Shown piece by piece: positions 1-39,467 of a DNA stretch of 64,000 nt. The translations under genes were made by a program, and so were the position numbers. Origin of the DNA: Aurantimonas endophytica (GTDB lineage Bacteria; Pseudomonadota; Alphaproteobacteria; Rhizobiales; Rhizobiaceae); assembly GCF_014196845.1 (NCBI RefSeq), contig NZ_JACIEM010000002.1, positions 682,001-746,000 on the forward strand, in the 5' to 3' direction. The notes under the pieces are model-generated. The model saw nothing but the letters and a program-made list of their open reading frames with translations. It did not search any database and was not told the DNA's origin. The first letter of the stretch is position 1. Every line of letters starts with the position of its first letter.

Positions 1-3000
1 CGCTGTCCGCCGGCTCGTAGGGCGTCGGGTCGAACTTCAGCAGGATCGACAGGCTCGGGGCACCCGCCGCGCCGCTGTAGCGATAGGCTCGCGTGGTGCT
101 CGGCCACTGGTCGAGCGGCATCGGCCGGTCGGCATAGAGGATCGGTGCCGGGACATCGCCGAAGGGCGGGCTATCGCTGCTTTGCGGCCGGCTGAAGGGC
201 GAGGGCGTGCGGTTGCCGAAGAGGTCCTGCCAGGCGAGACGGAACTGCAGGATGCTGCCGATGCCGACATAGGGGTTTGCCGATGCCGGCGGCAGCCCGG
301 CCGATTTCGGCTGAGGCGCCGGGTTGATCGGCGAGGCGTTGGTGAAGCCGATCGCCTGGTCGTAGAGGTAGGGCTGATCCGCGGCCGGTGCCGCGATGCT
401 TGCGGCCAGAAGGCGGGCGCCCACTGCCGGCCCTGCCTCGGACGGCGGCGGGTCCTTGGGGCCGAATGGCGCGCTGTCGACACTGGCGGCGAACAAAGCG
501 TTGGCCGAGATGCCCGCCGAGAGCAGCTGGTAGAGCTGCAGCAGCGTTGCCCGCGTATAGGAATCGATGTCGGTGGGCGGCGATACCGGTTCCGATCCCC
601 GCTCGCGCTCGACGGTCAGCCCGACATTACCGTTGCCAAGGCTTGGGGTTGCATCCCACGCGATCGGGTCGATCGTCAGCGTCGGGCCGACGAAGAGGTT
701 GGGAACGTCGCGGGCCGCATAGCCGAGCGCCGTGACGTCCGCCTGATAGTAGGCTGCCATGGCGTTGAAGCTGCTGCCCGGCCCGGTCGCGCCCACCGCA
801 TAGGTGAAGTCGGGAATGCGGAGAACCGCCAGCGCTTCCACGGGCACGCCCGGGTTGTGTTTCGCAATGTCGTCGGCGACGAGCGGAGGATAGACGCCGA
901 CCGAATAATAGGCGGCGAGCGCGGCGAGCGGGTCCTTGCCCGTCCCCACATCGGTGGGCAGTAATTGGTGGTAGAGGCCCGAGATCGGGATCAGGGAACC
1001 GGTCGCGAGCGGTGCGTCGGCGTTGGTGGACACCAGGCCGCCCAGGTCGACGCCGTAGGAGGCGGCGAGACCCGCGAGCGTCGAGTCCGTCGGCAGTGGC
1101 AGGCTGGCGACCGGGGCGCTCACGCCCGTCAGTTCGACGACAGCGCTGTCCGGATCGATAGGCGCGGTTGTCACCAGCGCGTTGACGGCATTGAACAGGC
1201 GCGCGCCCTTGGCCGGCGCCCCGGACGTGCCGGCGAGGCCGGTGCGCGAGATCGTCGCGACCAGCGTCAGCGTGGCGACGCCGCTTGTGTCGAAGAGCGA
1301 CGGAGGCAGGCCGGTGCCATCGGCGAGCATCTGGTAGAACAGGTAGGTGCCGCCGGAATTGACCGTGCTCAGCTCCCAGAGCAGCTTGATGAACTCGGCG
1401 GTCTTGTTGACGATGCCGGTCGGCAGCGCGTCACCGGAGGCAAGTGCGCGAAGACCCACAGCAGGAGGCGGATTGGTCTCGGTCGAAAGGTTCGACTGGA
1501 CGATGAAGGAGAGGAACTCGCTCTCGGCCCGGCTGGTCAGGCCCGGGGCGCCGCTGTTGACGTCGCCATAGAGCAGGAAGAGGCCGCTGACGAGGGCCTC
1601 GCCCTCGCTGGCCATGGCGGTCAGCAGCCGCTCGAGCAGCACAGCGTCGCTCGGGCTTGGCCCGATGATCTCATAGGCGAAGGGCGCCAGCGGCCGGGCC
1701 GGCGAGCCGGGATTGCCCGGTCCCGGCGGGACGACTGCATTGGCGTCTGGCCGCTCCGGCGCGAGGTCGGCGTCCTGCGCCAGTCGCTTGATCCGGAAGT
1801 CCACGCGCGTCGCCAGGCAATAGGAATCGATGTCCGTCGAAACCGTCTTGCGCGTCGCCGGGTCGGTGCGGCTGACGGATGGTGCGAGGACTGGCAGGTA
1901 AGGCGCCAGGTCCTTCACCGTGGCGATGCTGCCGGCAAGCGATGCCTGCGCCGCCTCGACCGCACTGAGCAGCGCGCCCGACAGGCCGAACAGCAGTGGC
2001 CTGGCCTGCGGTGTATCGCTCGCCGCCGCGAGAGCGGCGGTGCGCAGAGCCGGCGCGTGGGTGACCGAAGCCAGCCGGGCGGCATCCGACGTCGTCCACG
2101 TGGCGTGCGACGCCATGCCATAGCGGCGTGGCGCCAGCAGCGTTGCCCGCTCGGGCTCGAGCAGCGGTATCGCCGGCCGGTATCCCTGCTTTTGAGCCGA
2201 GGCTAGCACCTGGCCGGCGAGGCTCGTCTGGGCGATGATATCCCAGCCGAGGCTCGATCCGGTACCGAGCGTCAGCCATTTGAAATCTTCGGTTTCCGGT
2301 CGCGACAGGCTGATCGGGTAGGCGTCGGTGCGCTCGGCGAGCGGGAATTGCTGCCCGGTCAGCTGATAGGCGCCAAAGCCGCTCTGCTTCCCGGTCCAGT
2401 GCGGTGGCCCGTAGAGGAAGTTCGAGGGCAGCGCGAGGCCCGCCTCCACCGGCAGGCGCATGCCGTGCATCATGTAGCGCGCGCTCATCCCGGCGGTCTG
2501 GCCGAGCGTGCCGGCCGAAAGGATCGCCGGCCACAGCGCCGTATCGGGCAGTGTGAGCAGCGACGGCACTGCGAAGCGCAGCGTCGGATCGACAACGAAC
2601 AGGCCAGCGAGCGCCAGGTTCGACGGCGTCAGGAAGCTCGCCGCGGGCACGGCGAGCCGCCCGATTAGCCCGCCGATCGTGTCGCCGGCAACGCTGGTCA
2701 CGGTGACGTTCGGGATCGTCATGACGATGCCGGGCGCCAGCAGGCCCGGCTGCGTGTAGACGCCCGTCTGCGCCGACAGGACGTCGAGGGTCACGCCGAG
2801 ACCGGCTGCCAGCTGGGCGAACCCTTCGCCGATGGCGACGACGTGGCTGTGGGTGACGCCGTCCACCACGATCGTCACGGTTTCGCCGACGGCCAGCAAA
2901 TTGCTTCGGGCGGCATTGGCGATGATCAGGCCGGCGGAATCGGTGCTGCCTGCAACGGCGGCGTCGTTGTAGCGCGCCGCGATCGCCGCCAGCGTGTCGC

Positions 3001-6000
3001 CGGTCTGCACCATGTAATCGATGTCGGCGAAGCGCAGCGCCAGCTTCGGCGCGAGCGGGTAGGCGAGGTTGGCATTGACGAGGTCGAGCGCCGTCAGCTG
3101 CCCCGGCGCCAGGGCATTGGCCCAGTCGAGGATCGTCTGGAGGCTGGTCGCCGTGGTCAATTTGTAGGGATAGTCGTCGAAACTGTCGATGCCGCTCTGC
3201 ACCAGCTGCCGCGCCAGCAGGATGAAATAATCGGTGAAGACCGAAGCCGCCATCGGCTCCGGGTCGTCGGCGACGGCGGCAAGGCTTGGGGCGGGGGTGC
3301 CGGACTCGGACTGGACGTTCGCCGCGACGGTATTGAAGATCTTGCGCAGCTCCGCCTGGTATGCGGCGGTTGCCTTCACGTAGGAATCGTAGGCGATGGT
3401 CGTGTCGCCGGTCGCCGCCGCCGGGTCGGGGACGGTCATCGACAGGCAGGCGAGGGCCGGGAAGATCGTCGTGCCGGCATCGAGGTCGTCACGCCGGGCC
3501 TTTGCAAGCGTCGCATCGGCCGCGGTGACCGTGACGGCGAAGTTCGCCGCCAGGAAGTCGACGAGTTGCTTGGCGTCGAATGGCGCCTTGGCGGGATCTG
3601 CGAGCGCCTTCAGTATGCCCTCCAGCAACGGCCGGGAGACCGTTCCGTCGCCGGGCGCCGCCAGCGGAACGTCGGTTTCGGGGACGACGCTGGCGATGAT
3701 CCATGGCAGCAGCGCGCCGCACAGCCGGCCGAACGAGGTGTCGGCGCCGTCTCCGGCCCCACCGTCGGCGGTCGGCGCGTCCATGGCGAACAGGAGGACG
3801 AGCGCCGCTTCCTGCTGGCCGTAATCGGCGCCTTCCGCGCCGAGGATGGTGAACTGCGTCAGCGCCGTGAGCTTCAGCGGTACGGGCGCCCCATTGAGGG
3901 AAGCGCGCAGCAGCGCGTGCGGCTTGGCGAAGTCGAGGCTCAGCGGCCGGCCGACGATGCCGAGCTCGAACAGCGTTCGCGGCAGCGGCCGGGCGCGCTG
4001 CACGGCAATCGCGCCGTCGCGCCCGAGCAGCGCCGTCGCTGCCAGCGCCGAATGAGGATCGTCCCACGGCGCCGTGCCGTCGGAGCCGATGGTCAGTTCC
4101 TCGGTGATCGAGGCGGAGAAGGAGAAGCTGATCTTGATCGAGAACAGGCCGAGATCGATCTTGATCGAGACGCTGACCTGCACCGAGGCCGACAGCACCA
4201 GCGGGATCTTGCGATAGGATTCGTACGAAATCTTCGCATAGACGATGACGGTTAGGCTGACATCGGCCTTGATGACGGCGAAGTCCACCGAGCCGAACAG
4301 CTTGCCTATGATGCCGAACGTACCGGAAATCTTGAAATAATAGTCGCCCTGGACCTCGTTGCCGTTGCCCCTGTTGTCGGTCTCGAACGGGTGCCAGGCG
4401 GCGATCGTCCCCTCGATGATGCCGAACACGGTGATCGAGAACCCAGCCTTCAATATGCCCTTGTCGATGGTCCGGCCGATGCCGAGCTGGGCACCGAGGC
4501 CGAAGACGATCACCGGGTGGAACGTCCCGCGCGTCGTCGGCGGCAGGCCCGGCGCCGTGGCGTTGGACAGCTTGCCGAAATAGAAGCCGCCGGATCCCAG
4601 CACCGGCACGCCGTAGATGATCGCCTGAACGGTGAAGGACCGCGAGAAGTCCATGTTGTAGGGAAAGCCGAAATCGACGAGGAAATCGCCGTTGGTGTAG
4701 ATCTGCAGTCCGATGCTCGGCAGCGTCACCGACACGGCGCCGAAATCGAGGTTGCGCAGCGCGCTCGGCAGGGTGAACTCGATCTGGTAGCAGCCGATGT
4801 CGTCGGTGATCTTCTTGTAGAGGACGTCGATGGCAAGGCCTGCCAGCACCTTCATCTTGTCGCCGTTCAGCGCGACGCGCAGACCATAGAGATCGGGGTC
4901 GTTGAAGACGATCATGCAGTCGATGGCGTAGACGGGGGTGTCGCCGATCCGCAGCAGGCCGAGATGCAGCGCGCCCAGCCAGTTGGACGAAGCGTCGTAG
5001 TAAGGCTGACCCTTGACCCGCTGGGTCGGGTCGAAGGGCATGGTCCCGTCGGTGGACGGCGGGATGGTCTCCAGCGCCTTGATGACCGCCGCGGTGGAAT
5101 CGAAGCTGCCCGGATCGTGGATCTTGATCCGCTGCCCCAGCGCCAGCAGCTTGAGGTCGAAATAGGCGTTGCCGCGGCCGGGCACCTTGGGCATGTCGTT
5201 GACGTCCTGCCCGCCCTTGGAGGGGTCGAACAGCGGCGATGCCTGGGCACTGGGGATGATCGTCGAGCCGTCGATGGCGAGCTGGACCTTGCCGTCCACC
5301 TGCAGAAACTGCAGCCCGTTGATCTTGAGGATCCCGAGATCGATCGGCGAGGGTAGCTTGTAGCTGACGCTGACGCGGTTCTTCGCGTTCGGCGTCAGGT
5401 CGATCGTGAGCAGGAACCCGTCGAGCGAGATCTGATTGAGGATGTCCCAGGGCGAGGGCAGGGTGAAATACGGGTCGCCGATCATCTCGACGAGGGCCGT
5501 GATCAGGCCGCCGACCGTCCAGCCGGACAGCGAGAACGTCACCGACTTGTTGTCCTTCTCGTCGGACTTGTACTCCGCCCGAAAACCCTTCCAGCTCATC
5601 CACAGCGTGCTGTTTGCCGCGAAGGCCGCCGCGTCGAGCTGCGTCCCGCGCGGCAGCAGCGCCAGGGCGGCGAGGTCAGGCGAGCCGTCGGCTTTGACGG
5701 GCGGGCCGAAGCTGTAGCCGATCTGCACCGGGCCGATGTCGGCGATCTCGATCGTGCCGATCACCGAGCCGGCGAATTCCTCGCCGGCCTTGCGGTTGCC
5801 GTCGTAGTCGAGGCCAAGCTCGGCGAGGATGTCGACCGGGATGTCCTGGGTCAAATGGAAGGCCCAGCGGATCCGCGCCGCGATTTTATAAGCCGGCTTT
5901 GTAGTAGCGGGCGGGTCCACCGTCAGAAGCATGAGTCTGCCGGAAGGCTCCTGAAGCCGGCGCGTTGTCACCTGTGAATGGGCCGGCCGGATGGGGCTGC

Positions 6001-8017
6001 GCCAGCCGATACCCTGATGCGCCCCCGCCGCCCGGCGGGCCGGCCTCGTGGCGGATGCCCGGGCGGCGCTTAGCCGTGCGGTCTTCGGCGCGACGGGGAT
6101 CGTCGCGTTCACCGTCAGCGTCTCGATGACCAAGTCGCCCGGCAGGAAGTCCGGCAGATTGTAGGCCCGGAAGAACGTCGCGATCAGGTCCGACAGGCTG
6201 AGCGGCTGCGCCAGCGCGGCGTCCAACGTCCAGACCGGGGTCTCCGCCTTGCCGTCGTAGTCGACCCGCACATTGGCGGCCACCGGTCCGATGACGATCT
6301 GCCCGTCCATCGAGCCGGCGTAGACGGTCGTGCCGGCCTGGCCGTCGGGCCGGTTCGGCGTGGAGGCGTTGAGGTCGAAGACCAGCCCGGTGATCTGGAT
6401 GAGCGGCTTGGTGTCGCCGGTCGCCGAATCTGTGTGCCCGATGAAGGGGATGTCGACGAAGGCATCGACCTGGAAGCTGAGCGAATAGGTCTTGCGGCTC
6501 GGGCTGACGGCGAGGTGGATGTCGGAAAAGCCGATGGAAACCGCGTCCGGCAGGCCGATCGCGCCTTGCGTGATGGCGGTCAGGGCATCGTTGAGCGTCA
6601 CCGAGCCGGTGAAGCTGCCCTCGAAATCGAGATTACTGTCGATGGCGATCTCGAACAGGCCGCCCGGCTGGCCGTCCTTGGTCCTGAACACTGTGGGGAA
6701 CAGTTTGAACGTCGCCTCGAAGCGCGCGAAGTAGCTGGTTTCGCCAGCCGTGACCGTCTCGCCAGCCGCGATCGCCCTGACGGAGGAGTGCGCGTCGCTC
6801 GCCGAATAGTTGATTGTCCAGACGAGGGAGAACGCGTCGATCTCGAAGGCCGCGCCCGTCGTCGGGTCGTCGAAGAATTTGATCGGCTGGCCCTGCACGC
6901 TGCCCAGCATCGTCGTCAGGCTGCTCACCGCGGGTGTCGGCTTGAGCGGCCCGGCCAGCGTGAAACCCTGCATCTGCACGGCGGCGAGATATTGCTGCAG
7001 CGAGGCGGGCACCGCCGAGAAATAGCTGTTGCCGGCCATCAGCACGGCCACCGCCTGCGGCGTGATCGGATGTTTGGGGTCGGCCGGCTCGATTGCGAAA
7101 CTGTAGCCCGATGCGTCGTCGGCGATCATCGCCCGGAACGCCAGCTTCAGCGTCTGGCCGTCCGTCCCGACCACGTCGATCTCGACGCCGAAATAGAAAT
7201 ACGGCGTCTGGAAGGTCATCGTCGTCGGCTCGCCGTCCGCATCGATCAGCAGGGAGCCGTCCTCGTCCTCGGTGTCGGTGGCGGTCTCGATGACGAAGCC
7301 GAGATGTGGGTTGACGACGTCGAGGAAGAACAGCTCGAGGCCGGACCCGGCGGCGATGGGCGCCGTCAGATCCATGTCGGGATAGAGGATTTCGGCGTTG
7401 TCGACCTTGTCGAGGCTGATCGCGCCGCAGGCGACGAGGCTGGGCGGGACGGCGCCGAGCCCCTCGATCAGGGCGAACAGCGGCGCCACCGCGGCCGGCA
7501 CGGCGAGGACGCCGTAGAGATTCTGCCCGGCGGCCAGCGAGAGTGTCGTCCCCAGCGCGGCCGAGGCGAAATCCTGCGCCTCGCTGGCGAACAGGAACCG
7601 CTGCTGGCTGAGGCGGAGAAGGTCGAACGGCCAGCCGGCCGGGTCCATGCCCGGGAACTGGTCGGCGAGCTGCCAGCCGCCCGGCACGACGTCGATCGCC
7701 AGCAGCGGCGTCGCCGCCGTGCCGGCCGCGCCGTAAAGGCTCGCCGCGATCTTGTCCGCCGGCGCCTCCAGGAAGGCGAGCGTCAACGCCGGAATGACGA
7801 ACCGGTCATTGGTGACGGCGCCTACCGTGCTGCGATCGTAGTCGATGGAGAGCCCGTCGCTGTCGTCGGCGAGGCGATAGGCGGCCTTGATCGCGGCGTC
7901 GAAGTCCGGCGGCGGCGTCAGCCCCGCGGCCGTGAAGAACGCCGCATTAACGACGACGGGGCCGGCCGGCGCGTTTGCAAACGCGTCGCGGAGTGTTTGA
8001 ACGGCTGGATCGGCCAT
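1..8017 (-). CDS. Giant LysM-like repeat protein, 3' end outside window
   Basis: The frame starts at ATG 8017 behind a strong GGGAGG site, 15 bases after the upstream nuclease-like gene, and stays open to the window edge. At least 2672 residues are visible and the C-terminus is missing. There is no signal peptide. Residues about 700-1330 are beta-rich, with long runs of alternating hydrophobic and polar residues around 1230-1320. LysM-like modules occur at about residues 1668-1820 (three in tandem; the first reads VQTGDTLAAIAARYND) and again at about 2303-2452 (three more, for example TLAGLAASYGVDLGGLV). LysM modules usually bind peptidoglycan or chitin-like glycans, but six divergent ones inside a beta-rich giant may instead be structural. 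I do not recognise the family. A surface or secreted structural role is inference only. Confidence 0.85.
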   Translation of the reverse strand, partial: MADPAVQTLRDAFANAPAGPVVVNAAFFTAAGLTPPPDFDAAIKAAYRLADDSDGLSIDYDRSTVGAVTNDRFVIPALTLAFLEAPADKIAASLYGAAGTAATPLLAIDVVPGGWQLADQFPGMDPAGWPFDLLRLSQQRFLFASEAQDFASAALGTTLSLAAGQNLYGVLAVPAAVAPLFALIEGLGAVPPSLVACGAISLDKVDNAEILYPDMDLTAPIAAGSGLELFFLDVVNPHLGFVIETATDTEDEDGSLLIDADGEPTTMTFQTPYFYFGVEIDVVGTDGQTLKLAFRAMIADDASGYSFAIEPADPKHPITPQAVAVLMAGNSYFSAVPASLQQYLAAVQMQGFTLAGPLKPTPAVSSLTTMLGSVQGQPIKFFDDPTTGAAFEIDAFSLVWTINYSASDAHSSVRAIAAGETVTAGETSYFARFEATFKLFPTVFRTKDGQPGGLFEIAIDSNLDFEGSFTGSVTLNDALTAITQGAIGLPDAVSIGFSDIHLAVSPSRKTYSLSFQVDAFVDIPFIGHTDSATGDTKPLIQITGLVFDLNASTPNRPDGQAGTTVYAGSMDGQIVIGPVAANVRVDYDGKAETPVWTLDAALAQPLSLSDLIATFFRAYNLPDFLPGDLVIETLTVNATIPVAPKTARLSAARASATRPARRAAGAHQGIGWRSPIRPAHSQVTTRRLQEPSGRLMLLTVDPPATTKPAYKIAARIRWAFHLTQDIPVDILAELGLDYDGNRKAGEEFAGSVIGTIEIADIGPVQIGYSFGPPVKADGSPDLAALALLPRGTQLDAAAFAANSTLWMSWKGFRAEYKSDEKDNKSVTFSLSGWTVGGLITALVEMIGDPYFTLPSPWDILNQISLDGFLLTIDLTPNAKNRVSVSYKLPSPIDLGILKINGLQFLQVDGKVQLAIDGSTIIPSAQASPLFDPSKGGQDVNDMPKVPGRGNAYFDLKLLALGQRIKIHDPGSFDSTAAVIKALETIPPSTDGTMPFDPTQRVKGQPYYDASSNWLGALHLGLLRIGDTPVYAIDCMIVFNDPDLYGLRVALNGDKMKVLAGLAIDVLYKKITDDIGCYQIEFTLPSALRNLDFGAVSVTLPSIGLQIYTNGDFLVDFGFPYNMDFSRSFTVQAIIYGVPVLGSGGFYFGKLSNATAPGLPPTTRGTFHPVIVFGLGAQLGIGRTIDKGILKAGFSITVFGIIEGTIAAWHPFETDNRGNGNEVQGDYYFKISGTFGIIGKLFGSVDFAVIKADVSLTVIVYAKISYESYRKIPLVLSASVQVSVSIKIDLGLFSIKISFSFSASITEELTIGSDGTAPWDDPHSALAATALLGRDGAIAVQRARPLPRTLFELGIVGRPLSLDFAKPHALLRASLNGAPVPLKLTALTQFTILGAEGADYGQQEAALVLLFAMDAPTADGGAGDGADTSFGRLCGALLPWIIASVVPETDVPLAAPGDGTVSRPLLEGILKALADPAKAPFDAKQLVDFLAANFAVTVTAADATLAKARRDDLDAGTTIFPALACLSMTVPDPAAATGDTTIAYDSYVKATAAYQAELRKIFNTVAANVQSESGTPAPSLAAVADDPEPMAASVFTDYFILLARQLVQSGIDSFDDYPYKLTTATSLQTILDWANALAPGQLTALDLVNANLAYPLAPKLALRFADIDYMVQTGDTLAAIAARYNDAAVAGSTDSAGLIIANAARSNLLAVGETVTIVVDGVTHSHVVAIGEGFAQLAAGLGVTLDVLSAQTGVYTQPGLLAPGIVMTIPNVTVTSVAGDTIGGLIGRLAVPAASFLTPSNLALAGLFVVDPTLRFAVPSLLTLPDTALWPAILSAGTLGQTAGMSARYMMHGMRLPVEAGLALPSNFLYGPPHWTGKQSGFGAYQLTGQQFPLAERTDAYPISLSRPETEDFKWLTLGTGSSLGWDIIAQTSLAGQVLASAQKQGYRPAIPLLEPERATLLAPRRYGMASHATWTTSDAARLASVTHAPALRTAALAAASDTPQARPLLFGLSGALLSAVEAAQASLAGSIATVKDLAPYLPVLAPSVSRTDPATRKTVSTDIDSYCLATRVDFRIKRLAQDADLAPERPDANAVVPPGPGNPGSPARPLAPFAYEIIGPSPSDAVLLERLLTAMASEGEALVSGLFLLYGDVNSGAPGLTSRAESEFLSFIVQSNLSTETNPPPAVGLRALASGDALPTGIVNKTAEFIKLLWELSTVNSGGTYLFYQMLADGTGLPPSLFDTSGVATLTLVATISRTGLAGTSGAPAKGARLFNAVNALVTTAPIDPDSAVVELTGVSAPVASLPLPTDSTLAGLAASYGVDLGGLVSTNADAPLATGSLIPISGLYHQLLPTDVGTGKDPLAALAAYYSVGVYPPLVADDIAKHNPGVPVEALAVLRIPDFTYAVGATGPGSSFNAMAAYYQADVTALGYAARDVPNLFVGPTLTIDPIAWDATPSLGNGNVGLTVERERGSEPVSPPTDIDSYTRATLLQLYQLLSAGISANALFAASVDSAPFGPKDPPPSEAGPAVGARLLAASIAAPAADQPYLYDQAIGFTNASPINPAPQPKSAGLPPASANPYVGIGSILQFRLAWQDLFGNRTPSPFSRPQSSDSPPFGDVPAPILYADRPMPLDQWPSTTRAYRYSGAAGAPSLSILLKFDPTPYEPADS

Positions 8018-8032
8018 GGCGTCCTCCCTGCC

Positions 8033-9385
8033 TCAGATGTCCGCGACGATGGCGAGGTGGTCGCTGGTGCTGCGGATGCGGCCGTAATTGTTCCAGCCGC
8101 GGAACGCGCCCTGGCGGCCGGCGCTGAACGGCGGCGCCTGCGCGGCGGGGGCGGCGAAGGGCACCCCTGCCATGCGGATCGGCAGGTTATAGGTGCCGAC
8201 AGGGGGATTGCCGGGCACAGGGGGGGCGACGCCGTTGTAGCGGGAACCGACGATGCCGTTGAGCACCGTGACGTTGGCCGGCCCAACAGCCATGAGGCCG
8301 GCACCGTAATTGGCGAGGATGTTGTCGATGGAATAGAAGTTCTGGATGATCGTGCTGCCGACATAGCCGTAGCCGGGGTAGTAGTCGGTCTGCGCGTTGG
8401 TGGTCCAATAGGTGGCGCGACTGGTCCGCTTGATGTGCGTGCCGAAATAGCCAAGCCATCCGTTCAGCGGTGCGGGCGGCCCACCCGGACTATCGATGCC
8501 GAGCGTGTATCCACTGCCTTCCAGCGCGTCATAGCTGTCGCTGCGTGTTCGTGGTGCGTCGTTGTCCAGAAGATTGACGTTGAAGTCGCCAAGGACTACC
8601 CGCACCTCGTTCGCGGCGATGCCGTCGGCCACCTCAGCGAGATCGTCGAGCGCGGTAAGATAGGCGCCGGCGCCGGCATTGGCGGGCGAGTGGATGCAGA
8701 ACAGTGAAATGTCTCGCACGACGGGCGGCGCGCCAGCACCGGACATTTCCGCGAAGGTTACCCAGTAGGGCCGGCGCAGCGCGGCGAAGTTTTTCCCCAT
8801 GCCGGCATTCGCATGGGCTGCCGCGTAGGTGAAGCCGGTGGCAGCCGCGAGCTGGTTCTGCGCCGTCCCGGTGTTGAGTGTGCCGGCGGGTACCGCCGCA
8901 GCTGGCAGCGCGCCGACAAAGGGCGCGGCGTAAGCGGCAGTGGCGGGAGCCGGCGCTGCCGGCGGCACGGCCGGCCCGACGCCGCCCGGCCAGAGCCAGG
9001 GGCCGGTGAAGATCAGGTTGGTGCTGTCGAAATACACCGCCACCGCCTCGCGCGGCCCGGTCTGCAGCGGCGGGACGAGCATCCAGTTGGGGTTGGCAGT
9101 CACGGCCCGCAGCGCCGTCAGCAAGGTCAACGCCCCGGCTGGTCCGTTGCCGCGCGCGAGAACGCCAGGTCCGTCATAGCCGGTGGCGACCTCGACGATG
9201 ACCACGATGTCCGGCCGCGAGACGGCACCCCCTGCCGTTATGCCCCAGTGCGTGTTGATGTAGTTCAGTCGCTGCACCGAGGCCTGGTTTTGCTTCAGGG
9301 CGCCGCCGCGCTGCCGCTTGAAGCTGGGATTGGCAATCTTGTTCGAGGCGAATTTCTCGATGTTCCAATAGAGAATCCGGGTCAT
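8033..9385 (-). CDS. DNase I-like (EEP superfamily) hydrolase
   Basis: A 450-residue protein of the endonuclease/exonuclease/phosphatase fold. All hallmark motifs are visible: YWNIEKF at residues 6-12 (Asn8), VVIVEV with the metal-binding Glu65, a CIHSP histidine motif in the middle, GDFNVN at 266-271, and SDH at 441-443 just before the C-terminus. This supports an active metal-dependent phosphodiesterase, but DNA, RNA, phosphoinositides or other phosphoesters could be the substrate. It has an unusual Ala/Pro/Gly-rich insert at about residues 127-165. No signal peptide is seen. Its ATG overlaps the stop of the 1229-residue gene upstream (ATGA), and the giant gene follows after 15 bases, so it is translated inside this cluster. 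Confidence 0.85.
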   Translation of the reverse strand: MTRILYWNIEKFASNKIANPSFKRQRGGALKQNQASVQRLNYINTHWGITAGGAVSRPDIVVIVEVATGYDGPGVLARGNGPAGALTLLTALRAVTANPNWMLVPPLQTGPREAVAVYFDSTNLIFTGPWLWPGGVGPAVPPAAPAPATAAYAAPFVGALPAAAVPAGTLNTGTAQNQLAAATGFTYAAAHANAGMGKNFAALRRPYWVTFAEMSGAGAPPVVRDISLFCIHSPANAGAGAYLTALDDLAEVADGIAANEVRVVLGDFNVNLLDNDAPRTRSDSYDALEGSGYTLGIDSPGGPPAPLNGWLGYFGTHIKRTSRATYWTTNAQTDYYPGYGYVGSTIIQNFYSIDNILANYGAGLMAVGPANVTVLNGIVGSRYNGVAPPVPGNPPVGTYNLPIRMAGVPFAAPAAQAPPFSAGRQGAFRGWNNYGRIRSTSDHLAIVADI

Positions 9386-12300
9386 GCCCCTGGCTCCCGG
9401 GTCGCAACTTCTTCAATGGCTCCCGCCGTGCGCACCGGGCCGGCGATCGTCTCCCCGGGGGACGCCAGCAGCCGCGGCGCGCCCTGCCTTGGGGCACGCT
9501 CCTCGATCCGCGTTGTCTTCTGGTCGGCGACATAGGCAGCGTACCAGCCGAGGCTGCCGTTGCCGGAGGGATCGCCGAACAGGAAGAAGTTGATCGTCGC
9601 GCCCGGCGGCAGCTTGGCGAAGCCGAGAAAGGTCAGGCCGACATTGTTCAGCCGCAGCGTGAAGGAGAGCCCGGCCGTGGTCACCGCCTCGCGCCGCAGC
9701 ACGAGGCTGTCGATGGTGAGTTTCATCACCCCCTGGATCGACATCAGCTTGGCGCCGGGTGCCGCCCCCGGCAGCGAGAGGCCCACGAAGACCGCCGCCG
9801 TCGCATCCTGCGCGCCCGAGCTCGGGGCCCATGCGATGAGAATGCGCGAGGCAAATCCCGCCTGCGCGACAAGCCCGCCGGGCGAGCCCATCGTGACCTT
9901 GTAGGCGATGCCGTACCAGGGCCCCGACAGCGCCTTGATCTTCGGCTCCACCGAGACCGGCAGGAAGCCGAAATCCACCGCTCGCTTGTCCTCCGGCCCG
10001 GCGATGAACTCGTCGACCTGGAGCGCGAGATCGGAGAACAGGCTGTGTGCCCGCGGCTCGCTCGATCCCTGATCGAGCGCCAGCTTGCCGGCCTCGAACG
10101 AGAACGTTACGGCGTTCGGCGCGTCGAGCGGCGAGGCCATCGTGAGCTCGAGGCCCGAGAAGCTGAGCCCTGTCGCCGGCGCGGTGCGCGGCGCCTCCGC
10201 CGGAAGGCCGAAGGACAGGAGGTCGCAGTCTTCCGTCGCATCGCCGGCCTTCGCCGCAAGAATGGCGAATTCTAGCGCGCCGGACATCAGGAAGCGGCTT
10301 CGCACCGTACCGTCGCCGCTGTTGGACAGCGTGTTGAACACCACCCGCTGGATCGCCACCGAAGGCAGCACGTTACTGTCGAGCATCAAGCGGGTCGTGG
10401 CATTCTGCTCGAAGACGTAGACGCTGGTCGCACCCTGGCGCTGATAGCTTCCCTTCAGCACGACGGCGGATGCCGGCAGCTTGCCGACCGAGCCGTAGGC
10501 GGTGGTGACCGGCGATAGGAACAGCGCGTCGAGCGTCAGCTGCACCCGGCTGCGGAAATCGACGAGCGCGGCGTTGCGGAACAGCGCCTGGAGCTGCAGC
10601 ACCTGGAAGCCGAAATCGCCGTCGGTGCGAAGTGCCAGCGGCATGTCGGGATTGCCGCCCGCCTCGACATTCGCCCGGTAGGCCGGCAGCTGGTAGTCGA
10701 TCAGGCCGAACAGGCTGCTCGGCGCCTCCATGGTGACGCTCGTGCCCGAAACGGTCACCCGGCTTGCCGTCGCGCCGAAATGATGGGCGCGGAAGAGCGT
10801 GAAGTCGATCCCGGCGACGAGGCCCTTGATCTGGTCCGGAAATCCGGAGGGGTCGACCTCCGCCGCCAGCACGATGAAGCCCTGCCAGTTCGCGTCGGTG
10901 ACGATGCGGGCGAAGTCGTCATAGAGCGTGTTGCCGCTCTTGGCGGCGGCGATGCCGGCCTCGAGGTAGTCCTGCAGGTAGCTGGAGAGCCCGGTCAGCG
11001 CGATCCCCGGTTCGACGCCCTGGCCGGTCACCGAGAACGTCTCGGTGCCGACCCATTTGCCGGGGTTCTGCACCCGCTCGAGCAGCGAGCCGTCGCAATA
11101 TTTCATGATCAGGATGTTGCTGTAGGCGGTGGCATTGAGGGATTCGCCGACGGCGGCCGTTATCCGCCAGCCGCCGATCACCACTTCGCGGTCGAAGAGC
11201 GCCGTGCCCAGCTGCGCTGCGGGCGGGTTGGCCGGCGGCGGATTGGGCGCCCCGAGCTTGGCCGGGTTGACGATCACCGCCATCAGCTGGTTGGTCTGGA
11301 ACAGGCTCTGCAGCTCCGGGGCGAGGCTCTCGAAACCGAAATCGAGCGTGCCGCCCGCGGCGTCCTGCGAGCGCGCCAGCACAACCGTCTCGTAGAGCGC
11401 CTCGCCGCCGCCGTCCGGAATTTCCACTTCGGCATAGAGCCCCTGGGGCGTCGTCGCCTGATGAACCGTGGCGGCCGTCGGCGTTGCCAGCCGGCTCAGC
11501 CGCGCATTGCGCAGCGCCGTGAGCCGGGCGGTGCTGGCGGCGCCGAGGATGCGCTTTCGGGTCGACGATAGGATCTGGCTCTCGAAGCCGCCGTAATCCT
11601 CTATCGGGCTGTCGGCGGCGAGCGTGCCGAGCCCTGCATAGGGCGGCAGCGGCACGAGCAGCAGGCCGCCGTCGCTGCCTGCCTGGGCGATCGGAGAGGG
11701 CGTCGCCAGCGGCGGCAGCAAGGGCGTCGCATCGTTGGCGGCGTTCTGGGGCGGCGCATAAAGCGGGCTGCCCGAGGGCTGCGCCAGATAGCTCGCATCG
11801 CCCGAACTGCCGTTGAGCACGGCCGCCCAGGCGGTCGCGTAGGTATCGTCGAGCACCGGCTTGTCGCTCGGCGGCGCCGAGAGGCTGGCCTGCGGAAACG
11901 GGAACACAGGGGCATAGGCCGGCTGGTCCGGCAGGAAGCGCAGCCGGTCGTAGGAACCCTGGGACTGGAAGGGCGCCAGCGCGATGCGCTCCGTGCCGAA
12001 CAGGCCGGCGAGCAGCGTCAGCGTGGTGCCGGCCTGCGGGTCCGTCGGCGCGAGGAGGCCGAAATCACCGGCCGGGGTCAGGCTGACCCATTTGGTCGCG
12101 GCGTTCTTCGGGGTAGTCGGCTGCAGCACCAGCGCCCCGCACCAGGGCAGCGGTTCGCCATTCCCGTCGATGCCGTTCAGCGGCACCAGATCGACCGCCT
12201 GACCGGTCGGCGTGCGATACCAGCTGGCAATCTGCGTCGAACCGCTGCCGGCCAGTGCGAACAATGTCCGCAGGCGCCCCTCGGTCGGCACCGACAGCGG

Positions 12301-13071
12301 CGCCACCCGGTTGAACAGGTCGAGCGGGTCGACCGCGGCGGCATAGGAGAGGTCGGAAAGCTTCGCCCCTGACACGATCAACGGAAAGACGCCGCAGCGA
12401 TCGCCCTTGGTGGTCCCGTGCAGGAAGCGCATTCCGGTCGAGAGCCCATCGATCGTGTTGTGCGGCCCGGCCCGGGACAGAGCGCCGGCCATCGTGAACG
12501 AGCCGCCATGCGGGCCGAGGAAAGGCAGGCCTGCGCCGCCCGAAACCGAAGGCGGTTGCGTGTCGTCCTGGGTGTTGAACACCACCTTGCCGGATCCGGC
12601 CGTGCCGAAGACCAGGCCGCGCGCACCGATCGTGACGACCGTCTGGTTGGGGACGGAGAGGGTCAGCTGCCCCACCGGCAGGTTGAAGTCCTCCCCGGTC
12701 GAGATGCTTCCGCCGCCACCGTCGAGGAAGGTCACGGCGCTGGCCGCCGGTAGGCCGAAGACCGGGCCCGCCGGGCTCGCGAGCCAGACCGCGGCACAGC
12801 CGAGGAACACGCCGGAGTAACTGCCAAAATTCTGGTTGAGCCAGTCGATCACCGCCTGGGCGTAGGTCTCCGCCTGCTTGTTGTCCGCAAGGGTCGGAGC
12901 GCCGGTCGCGAAGAGATAATGGCCGCTCATGAAGCTGTCGGCGACGGAGAGGGTCTTCGGCGGCTTGGACTGGGTCCAGACGAAGCCGATCCAGCCCGGC
13001 GCCCCGCCACTCGCGTCGAGGGCGTAGAGCCGGCTGTCGAGGATCTGGCGGAACAGCGGATCGTCGCTCAT
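9382..13071 (-). CDS. Large beta-rich protein of unknown family
   Basis: A 1229-residue protein with no recognised catalytic motif, no transmembrane segment and no signal peptide. It is rich in Gly, Ala, Ser, Leu and short beta-strand-like stretches. The C-terminal third has a run ending in NFFLFGDP and GSLGWYAAY. The start at ATG 13071 has a GGGGAGG site five to six bases upstream. The gene lies 37 bases after the signal-peptide protein gene and overlaps the EEP enzyme gene by four bases. Composition and style resemble the non-LysM half of the giant protein, suggesting related folds, but I see no clear alignment. It could be a scaffold, shell or carrier component of the cluster. I do not assign a function. 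Confidence 0.8.
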   Translation of the reverse strand: MSDDPLFRQILDSRLYALDASGGAPGWIGFVWTQSKPPKTLSVADSFMSGHYLFATGAPTLADNKQAETYAQAVIDWLNQNFGSYSGVFLGCAAVWLASPAGPVFGLPAASAVTFLDGGGGSISTGEDFNLPVGQLTLSVPNQTVVTIGARGLVFGTAGSGKVVFNTQDDTQPPSVSGGAGLPFLGPHGGSFTMAGALSRAGPHNTIDGLSTGMRFLHGTTKGDRCGVFPLIVSGAKLSDLSYAAAVDPLDLFNRVAPLSVPTEGRLRTLFALAGSGSTQIASWYRTPTGQAVDLVPLNGIDGNGEPLPWCGALVLQPTTPKNAATKWVSLTPAGDFGLLAPTDPQAGTTLTLLAGLFGTERIALAPFQSQGSYDRLRFLPDQPAYAPVFPFPQASLSAPPSDKPVLDDTYATAWAAVLNGSSGDASYLAQPSGSPLYAPPQNAANDATPLLPPLATPSPIAQAGSDGGLLLVPLPPYAGLGTLAADSPIEDYGGFESQILSSTRKRILGAASTARLTALRNARLSRLATPTAATVHQATTPQGLYAEVEIPDGGGEALYETVVLARSQDAAGGTLDFGFESLAPELQSLFQTNQLMAVIVNPAKLGAPNPPPANPPAAQLGTALFDREVVIGGWRITAAVGESLNATAYSNILIMKYCDGSLLERVQNPGKWVGTETFSVTGQGVEPGIALTGLSSYLQDYLEAGIAAAKSGNTLYDDFARIVTDANWQGFIVLAAEVDPSGFPDQIKGLVAGIDFTLFRAHHFGATASRVTVSGTSVTMEAPSSLFGLIDYQLPAYRANVEAGGNPDMPLALRTDGDFGFQVLQLQALFRNAALVDFRSRVQLTLDALFLSPVTTAYGSVGKLPASAVVLKGSYQRQGATSVYVFEQNATTRLMLDSNVLPSVAIQRVVFNTLSNSGDGTVRSRFLMSGALEFAILAAKAGDATEDCDLLSFGLPAEAPRTAPATGLSFSGLELTMASPLDAPNAVTFSFEAGKLALDQGSSEPRAHSLFSDLALQVDEFIAGPEDKRAVDFGFLPVSVEPKIKALSGPWYGIAYKVTMGSPGGLVAQAGFASRILIAWAPSSGAQDATAAVFVGLSLPGAAPGAKLMSIQGVMKLTIDSLVLRREAVTTAGLSFTLRLNNVGLTFLGFAKLPPGATINFFLFGDPSGNGSLGWYAAYVADQKTTRIEERAPRQGAPRLLASPGETIAGPVRTAGAIEEVATREPGA

Positions 13072-13108
13072 GCGGGCCTCCCCGCGAGAGACGGTCCGCC
13101 ACCGGCGA

Positions 13109-14002
13109 TCAATTGTCGGGGGGCGGCGGCAGCGACCATTCCGCCATCGAAGCGGCGATCTGGGTCGGCGGCGTCGTCGCGGTGGTGATCGTCGCCTGCA
13201 GGAAGAGCATGCCGGGCTGCAGCGTCGTTGGAATGGTCAGCGTGATCTTGGCCCCCGAATCGATGCTCACGTCGCCCCCCTGGATCTTCGACGGGAACGC
13301 CTGCTGCGGCGAGAACTGCGTCGCCGTCAGCGTCGCGATCGGCGTGCTGCCACTGACGAACTGGAACTGCACGATGTTCGCCGCTGCCCCGCGCACGACC
13401 GTATGGGCGGAGAGCTCGCCATTGATCACCTGGGTGAACTCGGCGAACACCGGGTCGGCCTCCGCGGTCCAGGTGATGACCGCACCACGATAGGGCGTTA
13501 CGGTGCCGGCGCTGGTCGCCGTGACATCCGCCTCCACGGACGAGATCAGCGGCGGTGCCTGCAGGTCGAGCGTGACGCTGCCGGTCGCGGAACTCGCGCC
13601 GGCTTTCACGTCCAGCGAGAGGCTCGGCTGCGCCAGCGTGAGGCGCTGCATGGCGATGGCGACGCCGTTCAGCGCCGCGGTGACCGTCGCGTCGCCCCGG
13701 GCCGGGTTGACGCGCGCCGTCAGGACCAGCGGGCCGATGGTCCGCGAGTCTTCGTTGGCGGTGCCCACGGATGCCGGCGGCCCGAAGGCCCGGACCCGGC
13801 TTTCGAGCGGGGCGGGAGGCGGCGGCGCCGGGGAGGCGGGAAGCGCCCGGCCTGGCACCGGCGAGACGGACGTCGCCGGCTGCGCTCGGGCGGGGGGACT
13901 GCCGGCACTGTTGCATAGCAGGCCTCCTGACAGCGCGATGGCGAGGGCCGACCTCCCGATCACCCGCCGGAAGGCGTTTTTCCAGGCCGGATGCGGGCGC
14001 AC
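13109..14002 (-). CDS. Exported beta-domain protein
   Basis: About 297 residues from a GTG start at 14002, chosen because it gives a plausible signal peptide: a basic n-region, a core ALAIALSGGLL, and a likely cleavage after PPARA. TTG 14017 and GTG 13963 are alternatives in the same frame. A Pro-rich linker follows, then two beta-domains. The C-terminal about 75 residues align with the 128-residue protein encoded just upstream; shared elements are TQFSP/TQFTP, LTIPT and a final AxxxxSL or ASWTL strand. It is the only member of the cluster with an export signal, which suggests that the system has a periplasmic or surface-facing part. No catalytic motif is visible. The start is uncertain. Confidence 0.65.
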   Translation of the reverse strand: MRPHPAWKNAFRRVIGRSALAIALSGGLLCNSAGSPPARAQPATSVSPVPGRALPASPAPPPPAPLESRVRAFGPPASVGTANEDSRTIGPLVLTARVNPARGDATVTAALNGVAIAMQRLTLAQPSLSLDVKAGASSATGSVTLDLQAPPLISSVEADVTATSAGTVTPYRGAVITWTAEADPVFAEFTQVINGELSAHTVVRGAAANIVQFQFVSGSTPIATLTATQFSPQQAFPSKIQGGDVSIDSGAKITLTIPTTLQPGMLFLQATITTATTPPTQIAASMAEWSLPPPPDN

Positions 14003-14118
14003 TTCAATGCGACCCAAGAACCCCGCCGCCCCCGGGCCGCGCCTGCGATCGTAACCGAGGCCCGGGGAGGCAAAGTCCTTGGTGCGCCCGGACGCAGGCG
14101 CAGCTAGACGTCGAGCAT

Positions 14119-14138
14119 CCGGGGGATCATCCCCCCGG
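14119..14138 (-). repeat. GC-rich inverted repeat between two cluster genes
   Basis: CCGGGGG, a five-base loop ATCAT, then CCCCC(C)GG. It lies 59 bases past the stop of the 128-residue gene and before the exported beta-domain gene. There is no T-run on either side, so it is more likely a processing, attenuation or rho-dependent element than an intrinsic terminator. Confidence 0.4.
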
Positions 14139-14196
14139 GCCCCGTTCGTTGGGATCGCGACGGTCGACCGCGCGACGGCTGGCCATGTCGCCGGCC

Positions 14197-14583
14197 TCAG
14201 CTCGTGGAGCTCGACGACAGCGTCCAGGAGGCAACGGTTGCGTTGAAGGGGATGCCTTGCGGCGCCGTCGGCGTCACGACGGTCAGCGACGCGACAACCG
14301 AGCCGGCCTGACCCGACGTCGGGATGGTCAGGGTAAAACTGCCGCCCTTCTTGATCGTCAGCTGCCCGCCGACGATGTCGTAGGGAATCTCCGCTGTCGG
14401 TGTGAACTGCGTCAGCGTCGTGCTCCACAGCGCCACCGAGCCGTTGACCAGCGACACGGTGGCGTTCTGCCGCGCGTCGCCGGTCACCGTCGTGCTGATG
14501 GTCAGTTGCGGGCTCAGGACGAAATTGATCACGAGCGGAGAGGCGGCGGCCAACTCCGCGCTGAAGGCTTCTGCATGTGACAC
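14197..14583 (-). CDS. Small beta-domain protein, first gene of cluster
   Basis: 128 residues from GTG 14583, which has a GGGAG site nine bases upstream. An upstream in-frame ATG at 14664 would add 27 residues that read as non-coding. The protein is nearly all beta-strand in character, with alternating hydrophobics, and has no cysteine motif or clear signal peptide. Its C-terminal about 75 residues are homologous to the end of the next protein in the cluster, suggesting duplication of an Ig-like or beta-sandwich module. It may be a small binding or assembly unit. Function unknown. Confidence 0.7.
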   Translation of the reverse strand: MSHAEAFSAELAAASPLVINFVLSPQLTISTTVTGDARQNATVSLVNGSVALWSTTLTQFTPTAEIPYDIVGGQLTIKKGGSFTLTIPTSGQAGSVVASLTVVTPTAPQGIPFNATVASWTLSSSSTS

Positions 14584-14713
14584 GAGCGCAATCTCCCGAC
14601 AGTCAAGAAATTCAACTGGCAGGCGATCTCCTGTCCCAAATCGCCCGCACGTGCATGGAAACATGGGACTTGCTCAGTGACAACGGGGGCCGATGGAGAA
14701 AGTAGGATTTCGA

Positions 14714-14782
14714 CTAAGGAATATCTTGGGAGAAGCCAAAGAAGCGAGCAACATCAACGATTGCTGCAGTAGAAATTTTCAT
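14714..14782 (-). CDS. Possible 22-residue leader peptide
   Basis: ATG 14782 is preceded by TTAGG and opens a frame reading MKISTAAIVDVARFFGFSQ and three more residues before TAG. It is more A/T-rich than neighbouring genes. It could be a leader peptide, a remnant of a truncated gene, or chance. It sits about 130 bases upstream of the first cluster gene. Confidence 0.2.
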   Translation of the reverse strand: MKISTAAIVDVARFFGFSQDIP

Positions 14783-14875
14783 GACCTAACGGAAAGTTGA
14801 ACGCATCGGGACCGGAGGGTTGCAACCCAGGCGCGAGAATCGTTGGCTTCCGCAGCCGCTTCACGCCGCGCCCGG

Positions 14876-14918
14876 GCGAGGCGCACCTCGCCAGGGCAGA
14901 ACCTGCCGGTCCTGCCCT
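14876..14918 (-). terminator. Tandem hairpins after the efflux operon
   Basis: A first hairpin at 14893-14918 pairs AGGGCAG with CTGCCCT around an inner ACC/GGT stem. A second at 14876-14891 pairs GCGAGG with CCTCGC around a four-base loop. They start 26 bases past the stop of the RND gene on the minus strand. No T-run follows, so termination would be atypical or rho-assisted. Confidence 0.4.
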
Positions 14919-14943
14919 GCTGACCCTGGGGCCGGCGCTCTCG

Positions 14944-17900
14944 TTATTCTGCGGCGGGCTGGAGTCGGTCGTCCCGATCGGGCTTTGCCCGCTGCGGAAA
15001 TTCGGTGACGCGTTGCCAGCTGGGCCCGAAGAGGTCCGGTTCCGCCGGCCTCGCCGGATCGACCGCCATCTCGGCGCCGTGCGCTGCGCCGTCGCCGGCC
15101 TTGTTCGGCTTCAGCAGCCATTTGAACAGCCGCCCCACCGCATGGCTCAGGTCGTCCATCAGCGTGTAGACCGAGGGGATGAAGACCAGCGAGAGCACGG
15201 TCGAGACCAGCAGGCCGCCGATCACGGCGATCGCCATCGGCGCGCGGAACTCGCCGCCTTCGCCCGTCGCCATGGCCGCCGGAACCATGCCGGCCGCCAT
15301 GGCAAGCGTGGTCATGATGATCGGCCGCGCGCGCTTGCGCCCCGCGTCGATGATCGCCTCCGTCTGGCTGACGCCGTGCTTCTCCTGCTCCACGGCGAAA
15401 TCGACCAGCATGATCGAGTTCTTGGTGACGATGCCCATCAGCATCAGGATGCCGATGACGACAGGCATCGAGATCGCCGTATGGGTCAGCAGAAGGGCAC
15501 CGACGACGCCGCCCACCGAGAGCGGCAGCGAGGCGAGGATGGTGATCGGCAGGAAGAAGCTGCCGAACAGGAGGATCAGCACGACCAGCACCATCATGAT
15601 GCCGGCGCCCATCGCCGAGGCGAAGCCGGCGAAGACCTCGCCCTGGATCTCGGCGTCGCCGACCTCCTGGACCCGAACGCCCGGCGGCATGTCCTTGATC
15701 GCCGGCAGGGCCATGATGACCTCGCTGCCCTGGCCGATCTCGTAGCCCGGCATCATCGAGGTGCCGACCTTGACCAGTCGGTCGCGATCGTAGCGGTCGA
15801 TCGTGGAGGGCCCCTGGCCGAAGCCGATGTCGGCGACGCTCTCGAGCGGTACGGAGGCGCCGCTGCCGGTGGTCACCCGCAGGCTGCGGATGGTCGACAG
15901 GTCCTCGCGCGCGTCCTCGCGCAGCTGCACCCGGATCGGCACCTGGCGCGTGCCGACATTGAACTTGGCAAGGTTCGCCCCGACGTCGCCGATCGTCGCG
16001 ACCCGCACCGTCTCCGAAATCGTCTCGGGCGCGATGGCGAGGTCCGCCGCCTCGTCGAGCCGCGGGCGGATGCGGATTTCCGGCCGGGCGAAGGAGGCCA
16101 TGGCGGAGGGGTTGGCGAAGATCGGATCGCGCCGCATCTGGCTTTCCAGATCGGCCGCTACCGCCGCCACTGCGGCGCCGTCGGCGCCGAGGATGCCGAC
16201 CGACAATTCCCGCTCGCCGCGATCGTTGACGTAGAACGAGCGGATGTCGGGGATCGCCGCCAGCCTGTCGGCGATGACCGGCTCGAGGTCGCCCTGGCTG
16301 CGGGTGCGCTCGAACTTGCGGGTCAGGTTGATCGTCAGTGCCGCCCGCCGCACTTCCAGCGTGCCGGTGGGGCTCGACCCGCCGATCACGAGGACGCTGC
16401 GCACTTCCGGCAGTTCGCGGATGCTCGCCACCGCCTTGTCGGTCACGGCGCGTGTCGTCTCCAGCGTCGAGCCGGGCGGCAGCTCGAGCGACACCACGAT
16501 GCGGGAAGCATCCTCCTTCGGAATGAACCCGGTCGGCAGATATTTCACGCTGTCGATCGCCAGCGCGAACAGCGCGATGCCGGCAATCAGCGTGATCCAG
16601 CGCCAGCGCACCGTGGCGCGCAGGAAGCCCGTATAGGCCCGCATCAACAGGCCGTCATGCTGCTCCTCCGGATGCGGCATGCCGATATAGGCGAACAGGA
16701 TCGCCAGGACGACGGCGCCGCCCATGACCGCGAGCGAGAGTTCCGCCGCCATGTCGAACGTGACCGTGGGCAAGGCCGCGGCATAGGCGGCGACGGTGGC
16801 GAAGAGCGGGTTCTCGGCCGCGGCACCCGGCAGCGCCGCGAGCGCGAAGAGCAGCCCGATGGCAATACCCGCGAGCGGCGCGGCGAACAGCAGGTTGCGG
16901 CGGAGCATGCGGCCGAAGCTCGGGCCGGTCGTGGCGTGCGGATGGAAGAAATACGCCGCCATCATCGGCGTGATCAGCCGCGCCACGAGCAGCGAGAAGA
17001 ACACCGCGACCGCGACCGTCAGGCCGAACTGCTTGAAGTACTGGCCGGCAATGCCGCCCATGAAGCTCACAGGCGCGAACACCGCGATGATCGTCATGGT
17101 GATGGCGATGACGGCGAGGCCAATCTCGTCGGCGGCTTCCATCGCGGCCTGATAGGGCGGCTTGCCCATCGCCATGTGGCGTTCGATGTTCTCGATCTCG
17201 ACGATCGCGTCGTCGACGAGAATGCCGGTGACCAGCGTGATCGCGAGCAGGCTGACGAGATTGAGCGAGAAACCCATCAGGTCCATCGCCCAAAATGTCG
17301 GGATCGCCGCCAGCGGCAGGGTGATGGCCGCGACGGCCGTCGCCCGCCAGTCGCGCAGGAACAGCAGCACCACGATGACCGCGAGCAGTGCGCCTTCTGC
17401 CAGCGTCTCCATCGCCGACTCGAAGTTGCCGTAGGTGTAGGTGACGCTGTCGTCGATCTTGGTGAACTGCACGTCCGGATTGGCGGCGGCCAGCTGGCCG
17501 ACCTTTCCGGCCGCGAGGTCCGCGACGGTCGTGTCGCTGGCGCCCTTGGACCGATAGATCGAGAAGGCGACCACCGGCTGGCCGTCGAGCCGGGCGAAGG
17601 AGCGCGGCTCCTCCCAGGAGTCGGCAACCTCGCCGAGTTCGCTGAGCCGGACCTGCCGGCCACCCGGCAGCGACACCTTGGTGGCGCCGAGCCCGATGAC
17701 CGTGTCGGCGGAGGAGAGCGTGCGGATCGCCTGTTCCTGGCCGCCAAACTCGCCCCGGCCGCCGGAGAGGTCGACATTGGTCGCGCGCAGCTGCCGGTTC
17801 ACGTCCGCCGCGGTGATGCCGAGCGCCGCGAGCCGGTCGGGGTCGAGGCGGACCTGGATCTCGCGCTCGACACCGCCCATGCGCTCCACCCGGCCGACGC

Positions 17901-24050: not shown

Positions 24051-24132
24051 GCAACTTCCCGAAAAGCTTCTTCTCTTTCTTTTCCACGAGCAGACGCGTC
24101 AGGTGGCTACCGGCTCGTGGGCATGGAAGCCG

Positions 24133-31520: not shown

Positions 31521-31530
31521 GCCGGTGCCG

Positions 31531-31863: not shown

Positions 31864-31865
31864 GC

Positions 31866-36322: not shown

Positions 36323-36344
36323 GCAGGAGTTCGGGCCGGGAACG

Positions 36345-39461: not shown

Positions 39462-39467
39462 GGCGGC

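What the first reader, a model, noticed from the sequence alone, without database searches (positions are those of the whole stretch)
13109..14583. Two adjacent cluster genes share a duplicated beta-domain
The 128-residue protein and the C-terminus of the exported protein align over about 75 residues, with common TQFxP, LTIPT and a terminal AxxxxSL/ASWTL strand. Adjacent, same-strand paralogues differing in export signal could be inside and outside versions of one binding module.
Basis: seen in the sequence. Interest (0 to 1): 0.55.

Follow-up and report, generated by a model that had tools for sequence, protein, structure and literature searches.

The report
Duplicated beta-domain heads mobile gene cassette
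Two neighbouring bacterial genes carry three copies of one small, unnamed protein domain, and they open a five-gene block that comes and goes as a unit and is built around two very large proteins of unknown function that also occur together in distantly related bacteria.

Summary
Protein A (128 aa, 14197-14583, minus strand) and the C-terminus of protein B (297 aa, 13109-14002) share one domain over about 102 residues: BLASTP 9e-13, profile-profile 97.8% and 1.3e-12, 0 of 2000 shuffles. No library searched has the domain; confident hits lie only beside one kind of cluster. A and B head a 17.8-kb five-gene cassette, A-B-M-E-G (M 1229 aa; E DNase-I-like; G 3647 aa); a congener has the empty site. 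M and G occur together in 14 of 16 loci with either; the other two have only partial M. The 14 span four phyla. Other clusters put unrelated head proteins there, some lectin- or fn3-like, some paired paralogues, and some a different enzyme after M. Best reading, largely inferred: A and B are unexported and exported binding modules of a modular giant-protein complex. The export difference looks true in 3 of 4 A/B-type clusters, by eye. Binding is untested; structure models were too weak to name a fold.

The parts
14197..14583 (-). gene A, 128 aa, one copy of the domain, no signal-peptide-like N-terminus
   Evidence: dN/dS 0.23
14212..14523 (-). domain copy 1 (A residues 21-124)
   Evidence: hhalign range
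13109..14002 (-). gene B, 297 aa, two copies of the domain; start codon assigned by eye
   Evidence: orthologue in G003
13874..14002 (-). signal-peptide-like N-terminus of B (residues 1-43), conserved in G003, not clear in L009
   Evidence: cleavage motif recalled
13457..13750 (-). domain copy 3, diverged (B residues 85-182)
   Evidence: homologue in A. lipoferum 38.5% over 96 residues, 3e-12
13112..13456 (-). domain copy 2 (B residues 183-297), the paralogue of A
9382..13071 (-). gene M, 1229 aa, no family recognised
   Evidence: relatives
8033..9385 (-). gene E, 450 aa, EEP (DNase-I-like) enzyme with conserved catalytic residues
   Evidence: Pfam Exo_endo_phos only 0.26 for this member, 5 of 6 members at E up to 1, best 1.2e-4
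2..8017 (-). gene G, giant of 3647 aa; runs off the window, stop at contig position 679074
3986..5203 (-). most conserved core of G, about 400 aa
2870..3016 (-). LysM-like stretch of G (residues 1668-1716), 20.5 bits, just under Pfam's cut-off of 20.9
1..14929 (.). part inside the window of the 17,842-bp cassette (contig 679088-696929) that is absent from congener G002

Best explanation
A and B arose by duplication of one roughly 100-residue, beta-rich domain and are the head (probably recognition or docking) subunits of a five-gene mobile cassette. SHOWN: the A/B-C homology; a third diverged copy in B; the domain's confident occurrences only at this kind of cluster; A-B-M-E-G present or absent as one block in congeners; M and G together in 14 of 16 loci that have either; other head proteins, and in some clusters another enzyme after M. 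INFERRED: M and the giant G form a large beta-rich scaffold; E (DNase-I-like) is its enzymatic cargo or working subunit; A joins the complex in the producing cell, while B, exported, puts the same kind of binding surface in the envelope or outside. It would work like multi-part toxins or degradative complexes with paired binding subunits and one catalytic subunit, but it is not shown to be a member of any such family.
For: Homology. One block: empty site in G002, alignments of the two flanks ending 26 bp apart against 17,842 bp here; the five genes fill about 97% of it; filled in G003. M and the G core, searched apart, hit the same 8 of 72,556 plasmid records. Head position: paired paralogues in 6 of 14 clusters (A/B in 3; A. 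lipoferum; Azospirillum B510 1.3e-19 and G225 5e-16), Laminin_G_3 in Nostoc (71 bits), fn3 in Embleya (31.5 bits, cut-off 25). Enzyme: EEP in 6 of 14 clusters, metallo-beta-lactamase-like in Tistrella and Embleya (2.6e-9 to each other).
Against: No interaction, expression or activity data. A and B's predicted fold is poor (pLDDT 46.9) and has no fold match. B's L009 orthologue has no clear signal and A's hydropathy is nearly as high as B's. The A/B domain is absent from 10 of 14 clusters, so it is not needed for M and G. Several head proteins could not be assigned (Lysinibacillus, G048, IMG/VR contig), and Paenibacillus has a protease-like and a hydrolase-like protein there. No secretion route for M or G is recognised.
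Confidence: 0.35

Rival explanations
1. A and B are immunity proteins: A protects the cytoplasm and exported B protects the envelope of the producer from the cassette's own enzyme E (or from G).
For: All 4 A/B-type clusters have the EEP gene between M and G, and none of the 8 clusters without EEP has A/B. An inside and an outside copy would fit protection of two compartments.
Against: Two EEP clusters (Nostoc, G225) lack A/B; 3 of the 4 A/B clusters are close relatives, so the association is weak; A and B are separated from E by M.
Confidence: 0.2
2. A and B are structural or assembly subunits (cap, chaperone or surface-anchor parts) of an M-G particle or envelope layer, with no recognition role.
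For: Small beta-rich domain, tandem duplication, constant first position; long-strand prediction for the G core.
Against: Different, unrelated head proteins elsewhere, including lectin-like and fn3 ones, suggest a changing partner rather than a fixed structural part.
Confidence: 0.2
3. The cassette is an anti-phage or anti-plasmid defence system and A/B are its sensor subunits.
For: Sporadic, present or absent at one site, often on plasmids; the Tistrella enzyme weakly matches PADLOC metallo-beta-lactamase models (2.4e-5).
Against: No PADLOC hit for A, B or G, and for M only AbiEii at 0.0082 over 56 residues; signal-peptide-like N-termini on several components.
Confidence: 0.08

Closest known systems
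EEP superfamily (Pfam PF03372 Exo_endo_phos)
   Same: E has the invariant H, GD(F/W)N, D and SDH residues in 6 of 6 aligned members
   Different: The window member scores 11.4 bits against Pfam's cut-off of 24.5; nothing else in the cassette belongs to it
Cytolethal distending toxin layout: paralogous binding subunits CdtA/CdtC plus EEP-type CdtB (recalled, no toxin sequence fetched)
   Same: A paralogous pair of small beta-rich proteins encoded with a DNase-I-like enzyme
   Different: A and B hit no Pfam family, so no ricin-type lectin; E has no clear signal peptide; that toxin has no M or G
Polymorphic or multi-part toxin complexes in general (recalled)
   Same: Constant large proteins with variable enzyme and variable binding-type proteins; sporadic and mobile
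   Different: Pfam, NCBIfam and PHROGs recognise nothing confident in A, B or M, and in window G only a LysM-like stretch

Membership tests
A/B domain family (defined here) | Profile match of each copy to the others | tested here: met
   A and B-C find each other (5e-14 and 2e-16); B-N plus the A. lipoferum protein finds A at about 1e-6; B-N and B-C do not find each other
EEP (Exo_endo_phos) | Catalytic residues | tested here: met
   H, D, N, D, D, H invariant in 6 of 6; that they are catalytic is recalled
EEP (Exo_endo_phos) | Pfam score above the curated cut-off for the window protein | tested here: not met
   11.4 against 24.5 bits
EEP (Exo_endo_phos) | Phosphoesterase or nuclease activity | not testable with these tools
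   needs an assay
Cytolethal distending toxin | Ricin-type lectin domains in both binding subunits | tested here: not met
   no Pfam family at E up to 1 for A or B
Cytolethal distending toxin | Signal peptide on the EEP subunit | tested here: inconclusive
   hydropathy peak of E within its first 70 residues is at residue 59, not at the start; no predictor was available
Phage-encoded module | Relatives in phage records or families | tested here: not met
   no match in 50,697 phage records for M, G core or B domains; no PHROG below 0.01. One IMG/VR contig does carry M and G
Known anti-phage defence system (PADLOC) | Confident PADLOC model hit in a core protein | tested here: not met
   A, B, G none; M only AbiEii 0.0082 over 56 residues
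Tc-type toxin complex | Recognised Tc or Rhs domains in the giant | tested here: not met
   none reported by Pfam in six giants of different clusters

The most novel reading that the evidence does not exclude
A previously undescribed, mobile, cross-phylum class of modular giant-protein machine: a constant pair (M of about 1080-1270 aa and a giant of about 2100-4100 aa, in some clusters split in two) combined with exchangeable recognition heads, in several clusters duplicated into paralogous pairs of which one may be exported, and an exchangeable phosphoesterase or other hydrolase, working as a delivered or surface-mounted enzyme complex in competition or host interaction.
Probability: 0.3. Interest if true: 0.8.

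Novelty: categorically new. Interest (0 to 1): 0.5.

Why it matters
The paired domain is a small thread that leads to a gene cassette that none of the family libraries searched here describes, yet whose two large proteins occur together in four bacterial phyla. If head and enzyme positions really are exchangeable on a fixed M-G scaffold, this would be a new modular machine. The A/B pair is the easiest entry point: two small proteins whose partners can be sought by pull-down. The rating 'categorically new' is for protein families and gene layout that match nothing searched; the function is unproven.

Tried and rejected
Rejected: chance similarity (shuffles); a phage origin (with the caveat of one IMG/VR contig); a PADLOC defence system; the A/B domain inside M or G (best stray BLAST row 0.017; stray profile rows 0.014 and above in giants); homology between M and the G core; a conserved RNA hairpin between A and B (the window's short perfect hairpin is not seen in the two relatives).

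Led nowhere: PDB sequence searches (none for the G core or A; chance-level rows of 0.064 or worse for M, E and the domain). Foldseek on two low-confidence models gave no row at E <= 0.001; the rows shown for the G core are mostly outer-membrane barrels and pore-forming proteins. A scan of viral contigs with A found none, and A in plasmids none at 0.01. Literature searches showed no description of the cluster; only listings with the openings of abstracts were seen, plus 12 of 22 passages of PMC3102044, none of which describes this locus. One search used three protein accessions from the records and three locus tags that I guessed, so its empty result says little; one search was swamped by LysM papers. 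A recalled resemblance of G to DUF6603 proteins got no Pfam support.

Full report
Observation. Gene A (14197-14583) and gene B (13109-14002) lie on the minus strand, 194 bp apart. A and the C-terminal 115 residues of B are homologous: BLASTP 9e-13; 155 against 35.3, SD 6.4, with 0 of 2000 shuffles reaching it; hhalign 97.8% and 1.3e-12 between 3 A orthologues and 3 B C-domains. Among the cluster proteins tested, a profile of A alone finds window B through its C-domain at 4.9e-14, and a profile of the C-domain finds window A at 2e-16. The alignment covers about 102 residues, more than the 75 reported.

A third copy. B's residues 86-182 are a diverged third copy. A versus B-N: 3 of 2000 shuffles and 1 of 2000; in G003 11 of 2000, in L009 75 of 2000. 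hhalign gives 52% and 1.4e-4. The single-domain Azospirillum lipoferum protein AZOLI_RS32610 is 38.5% identical to B-N over 96 residues (3e-12), and a profile of B-N with it finds the three A orthologues at 8e-7 to 2.6e-6. Its neighbour AZOLI_RS32615 is a weak relative (BLASTP 0.009; 0 of 2000 shuffles against AZOLI_RS32610; 0.0036 by that profile). Against: B-N and B-C match each other in none of the tests. In the predicted model of B four strands at 83-122 are echoed by four at 185-228, but the model is poor (mean pLDDT 46.9, C-domain blocks 46-76).

Export. B in the window and in G003 has a basic, then a hydrophobic stretch and ARA|Q; A. lipoferum's AZOLI_RS32610 has the same kind of start with AWA|A (motifs recalled). 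A and AZOLI_RS32615 have no such start. The L009 orthologue of B has none that is clear. Peak hydropathy over 11 residues is 2.2, 2.55 and 2.4 for the three exported-looking proteins and 1.49 for the L009 one, but also 1.91, 1.91 and 2.07 for the A orthologues, where the stretch is part of the domain, so the number alone does not decide. By eye the inside/outside pairing holds in 3 of 4 A/B-type clusters.

The cassette. A and B are followed by M (1229 aa), E (450 aa) and G (3647 aa, from window 8017 to contig position 679074), with gaps of 37, -4 and 15 bp. In congener G002 the pump-like gene upstream of A (RND type, recalled) and the region downstream of G lie side by side, their alignments ending 26 bp apart; in the window genome 17,842 bp stand between, and the five genes fill about 97% of it. 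G003 has the filled site. Of 7 congeners searched, 4 have the pump at the threshold used and 5 match the downstream flank; in G005 and G007 the two are far apart or on different contigs. Whether the block was gained or lost is not decided.

Distribution. M was found in 3 of 100 relatives and 4 of 299 phylum genomes, own genome included in both. In two of these, G184 and G336, M is shortened or partial and no G core lies in the 16-17 kb fetched. M and the G core, searched apart, hit the same 8 of 72,556 plasmid records: Azospirillum (2), Lysinibacillus, Mycetohabitans, Paenibacillus, Nostoc, Tistrella, Embleya. With the window, G003, L009 (a Lysobacteraceae contig, the nearest named relative), G048, G225 and one IMG/VR contig (L049) this makes 14 loci with both M and G, of 16 with either. 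The 14 lie in Pseudomonadota, Bacillota, Cyanobacteriota and Actinomycetota as far as they are named. The G core is in none of 50,697 phage records, and in G225's family only in G225 itself, 1 of 148. The A/B domain was found in 3 of 10 genomes or records searched, confidently only at the cluster (one stray row at 0.215), in 2 of 297 genomes of the window's family, in 1 plasmid record, and in 4,526 open frames of fetched loci only at these same genes (the profile was built from them). G048, of the window's own family, has M and G without the domain.

Head position. A/B stand in 4 of 14 clusters. Azospirillum B510 has two paralogous proteins (1.3e-19) related to one in Mycetohabitans, and G225 has two paralogues (5e-16); by shuffles none of those tested resembles A. 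Counting A. lipoferum, paired paralogues occur in 6 of 14. Nostoc has a Laminin_G_3 protein (71 bits), Embleya an fn3 protein (31.5 bits, cut-off 25), Tistrella an fn3-like one below cut-off (19.5). Paenibacillus has a Nal1-type protease-like protein (31.7 bits, cut-off 26.1) and a hydrolase-like one below cut-off. The heads in Lysinibacillus, G048 and the IMG/VR contig I could not assign.

Enzyme position. EEP lies between M and G in 5 of 14 (window, G003, L009, A. lipoferum, Nostoc) and upstream of M in G225. The H, GD-N, D and SDH residues are invariant in these 6; Pfam's Exo_endo_phos is listed for 5 of 6 at E up to 1, best 1.2e-4. Tistrella and Embleya have related metallo-beta-lactamase-like proteins there (2.6e-9 to each other; PADLOC RTasMBL 2.4e-5 for Tistrella; Pfam none). 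The other seven, G225 included, have nothing between M and G, a split part of the giant, or, in G048, an unassigned 158-aa protein.

The giant. In window G only a LysM-like stretch is recognised, just under Pfam's cut-off (20.5 against 20.9 bits); in the Azospirillum B510 and Paenibacillus giants LysM is above it. The 400-residue core is about 26-46% identical between distant clusters. It is modelled with six strands of 18-23 residues at mean pLDDT 47.6. Hydropathy there alternates (lag-2 autocorrelation 0.26, 4 of 2000 shuffles; not unusual for A, B-C, E or either half of M in the same test). Foldseek found nothing significant. This hints at long amphipathic sheets and names no fold.

Interpretation. 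The strongest statement is that A and B are paralogous, cluster-dedicated modules heading a block that is present or absent as a whole. That they are recognition or docking subunits is inferred from position and from what stands there elsewhere. That M and G form a scaffold for E is inferred from their constant pairing. The immunity rival fits the fact that all 4 A/B clusters have EEP between M and G and none of the 8 clusters without EEP has A/B, though 3 of the 4 are close relatives. Of known kinds tested, only EEP accounts for any part, and only for E.

Noticed in passing
L037 9396-12101 (G184) and L035/L038 (G336): A shortened M (901-aa frame) and a partial M match without a G core in the fetched surroundings, perhaps remnants of lost cassettes.
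   Followed up: partly
window 24001-40000: Strong AT skew (-0.113 and -0.253 at 24-32 kb, +0.126 at 36-40 kb) against a background near zero.
   Followed up: no
window 14797-18186, plus strand: A 1129-aa open frame antisense to the pump-like gene 14944-18414, most likely an effect of high G+C.
   Followed up: no
window 14003-14196: A short perfect G+C-rich hairpin between A and B; not seen in the corresponding gaps of G003 and L009.
   Followed up: partly
L036 13495-17202 (G225): Two small paralogous head proteins, an unassigned 432-aa protein, an EEP protein and a 229-aa protein, the last two with signal-like starts, all upstream of M.
   Followed up: partly
L049 1474-2085: The IMG/VR cluster has upstream of M a 203-aa protein with a motif I recall from L,D-transpeptidases; Pfam gave no hit.
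   Followed up: partly
L028 24976-26721 (Tistrella mobilis plasmid): A protein with a Hint-like region (below Pfam's cut-off) lies just upstream of the head gene.
   Followed up: no
L027 1-8544 (Azospirillum lipoferum plasmid) and L011 3041-4210 (Lysinibacillus plasmid): Clusters lie beside mobility genes: transposases and a type III-B CRISPR locus in one, a tyrosine recombinase in the other.
   Followed up: no
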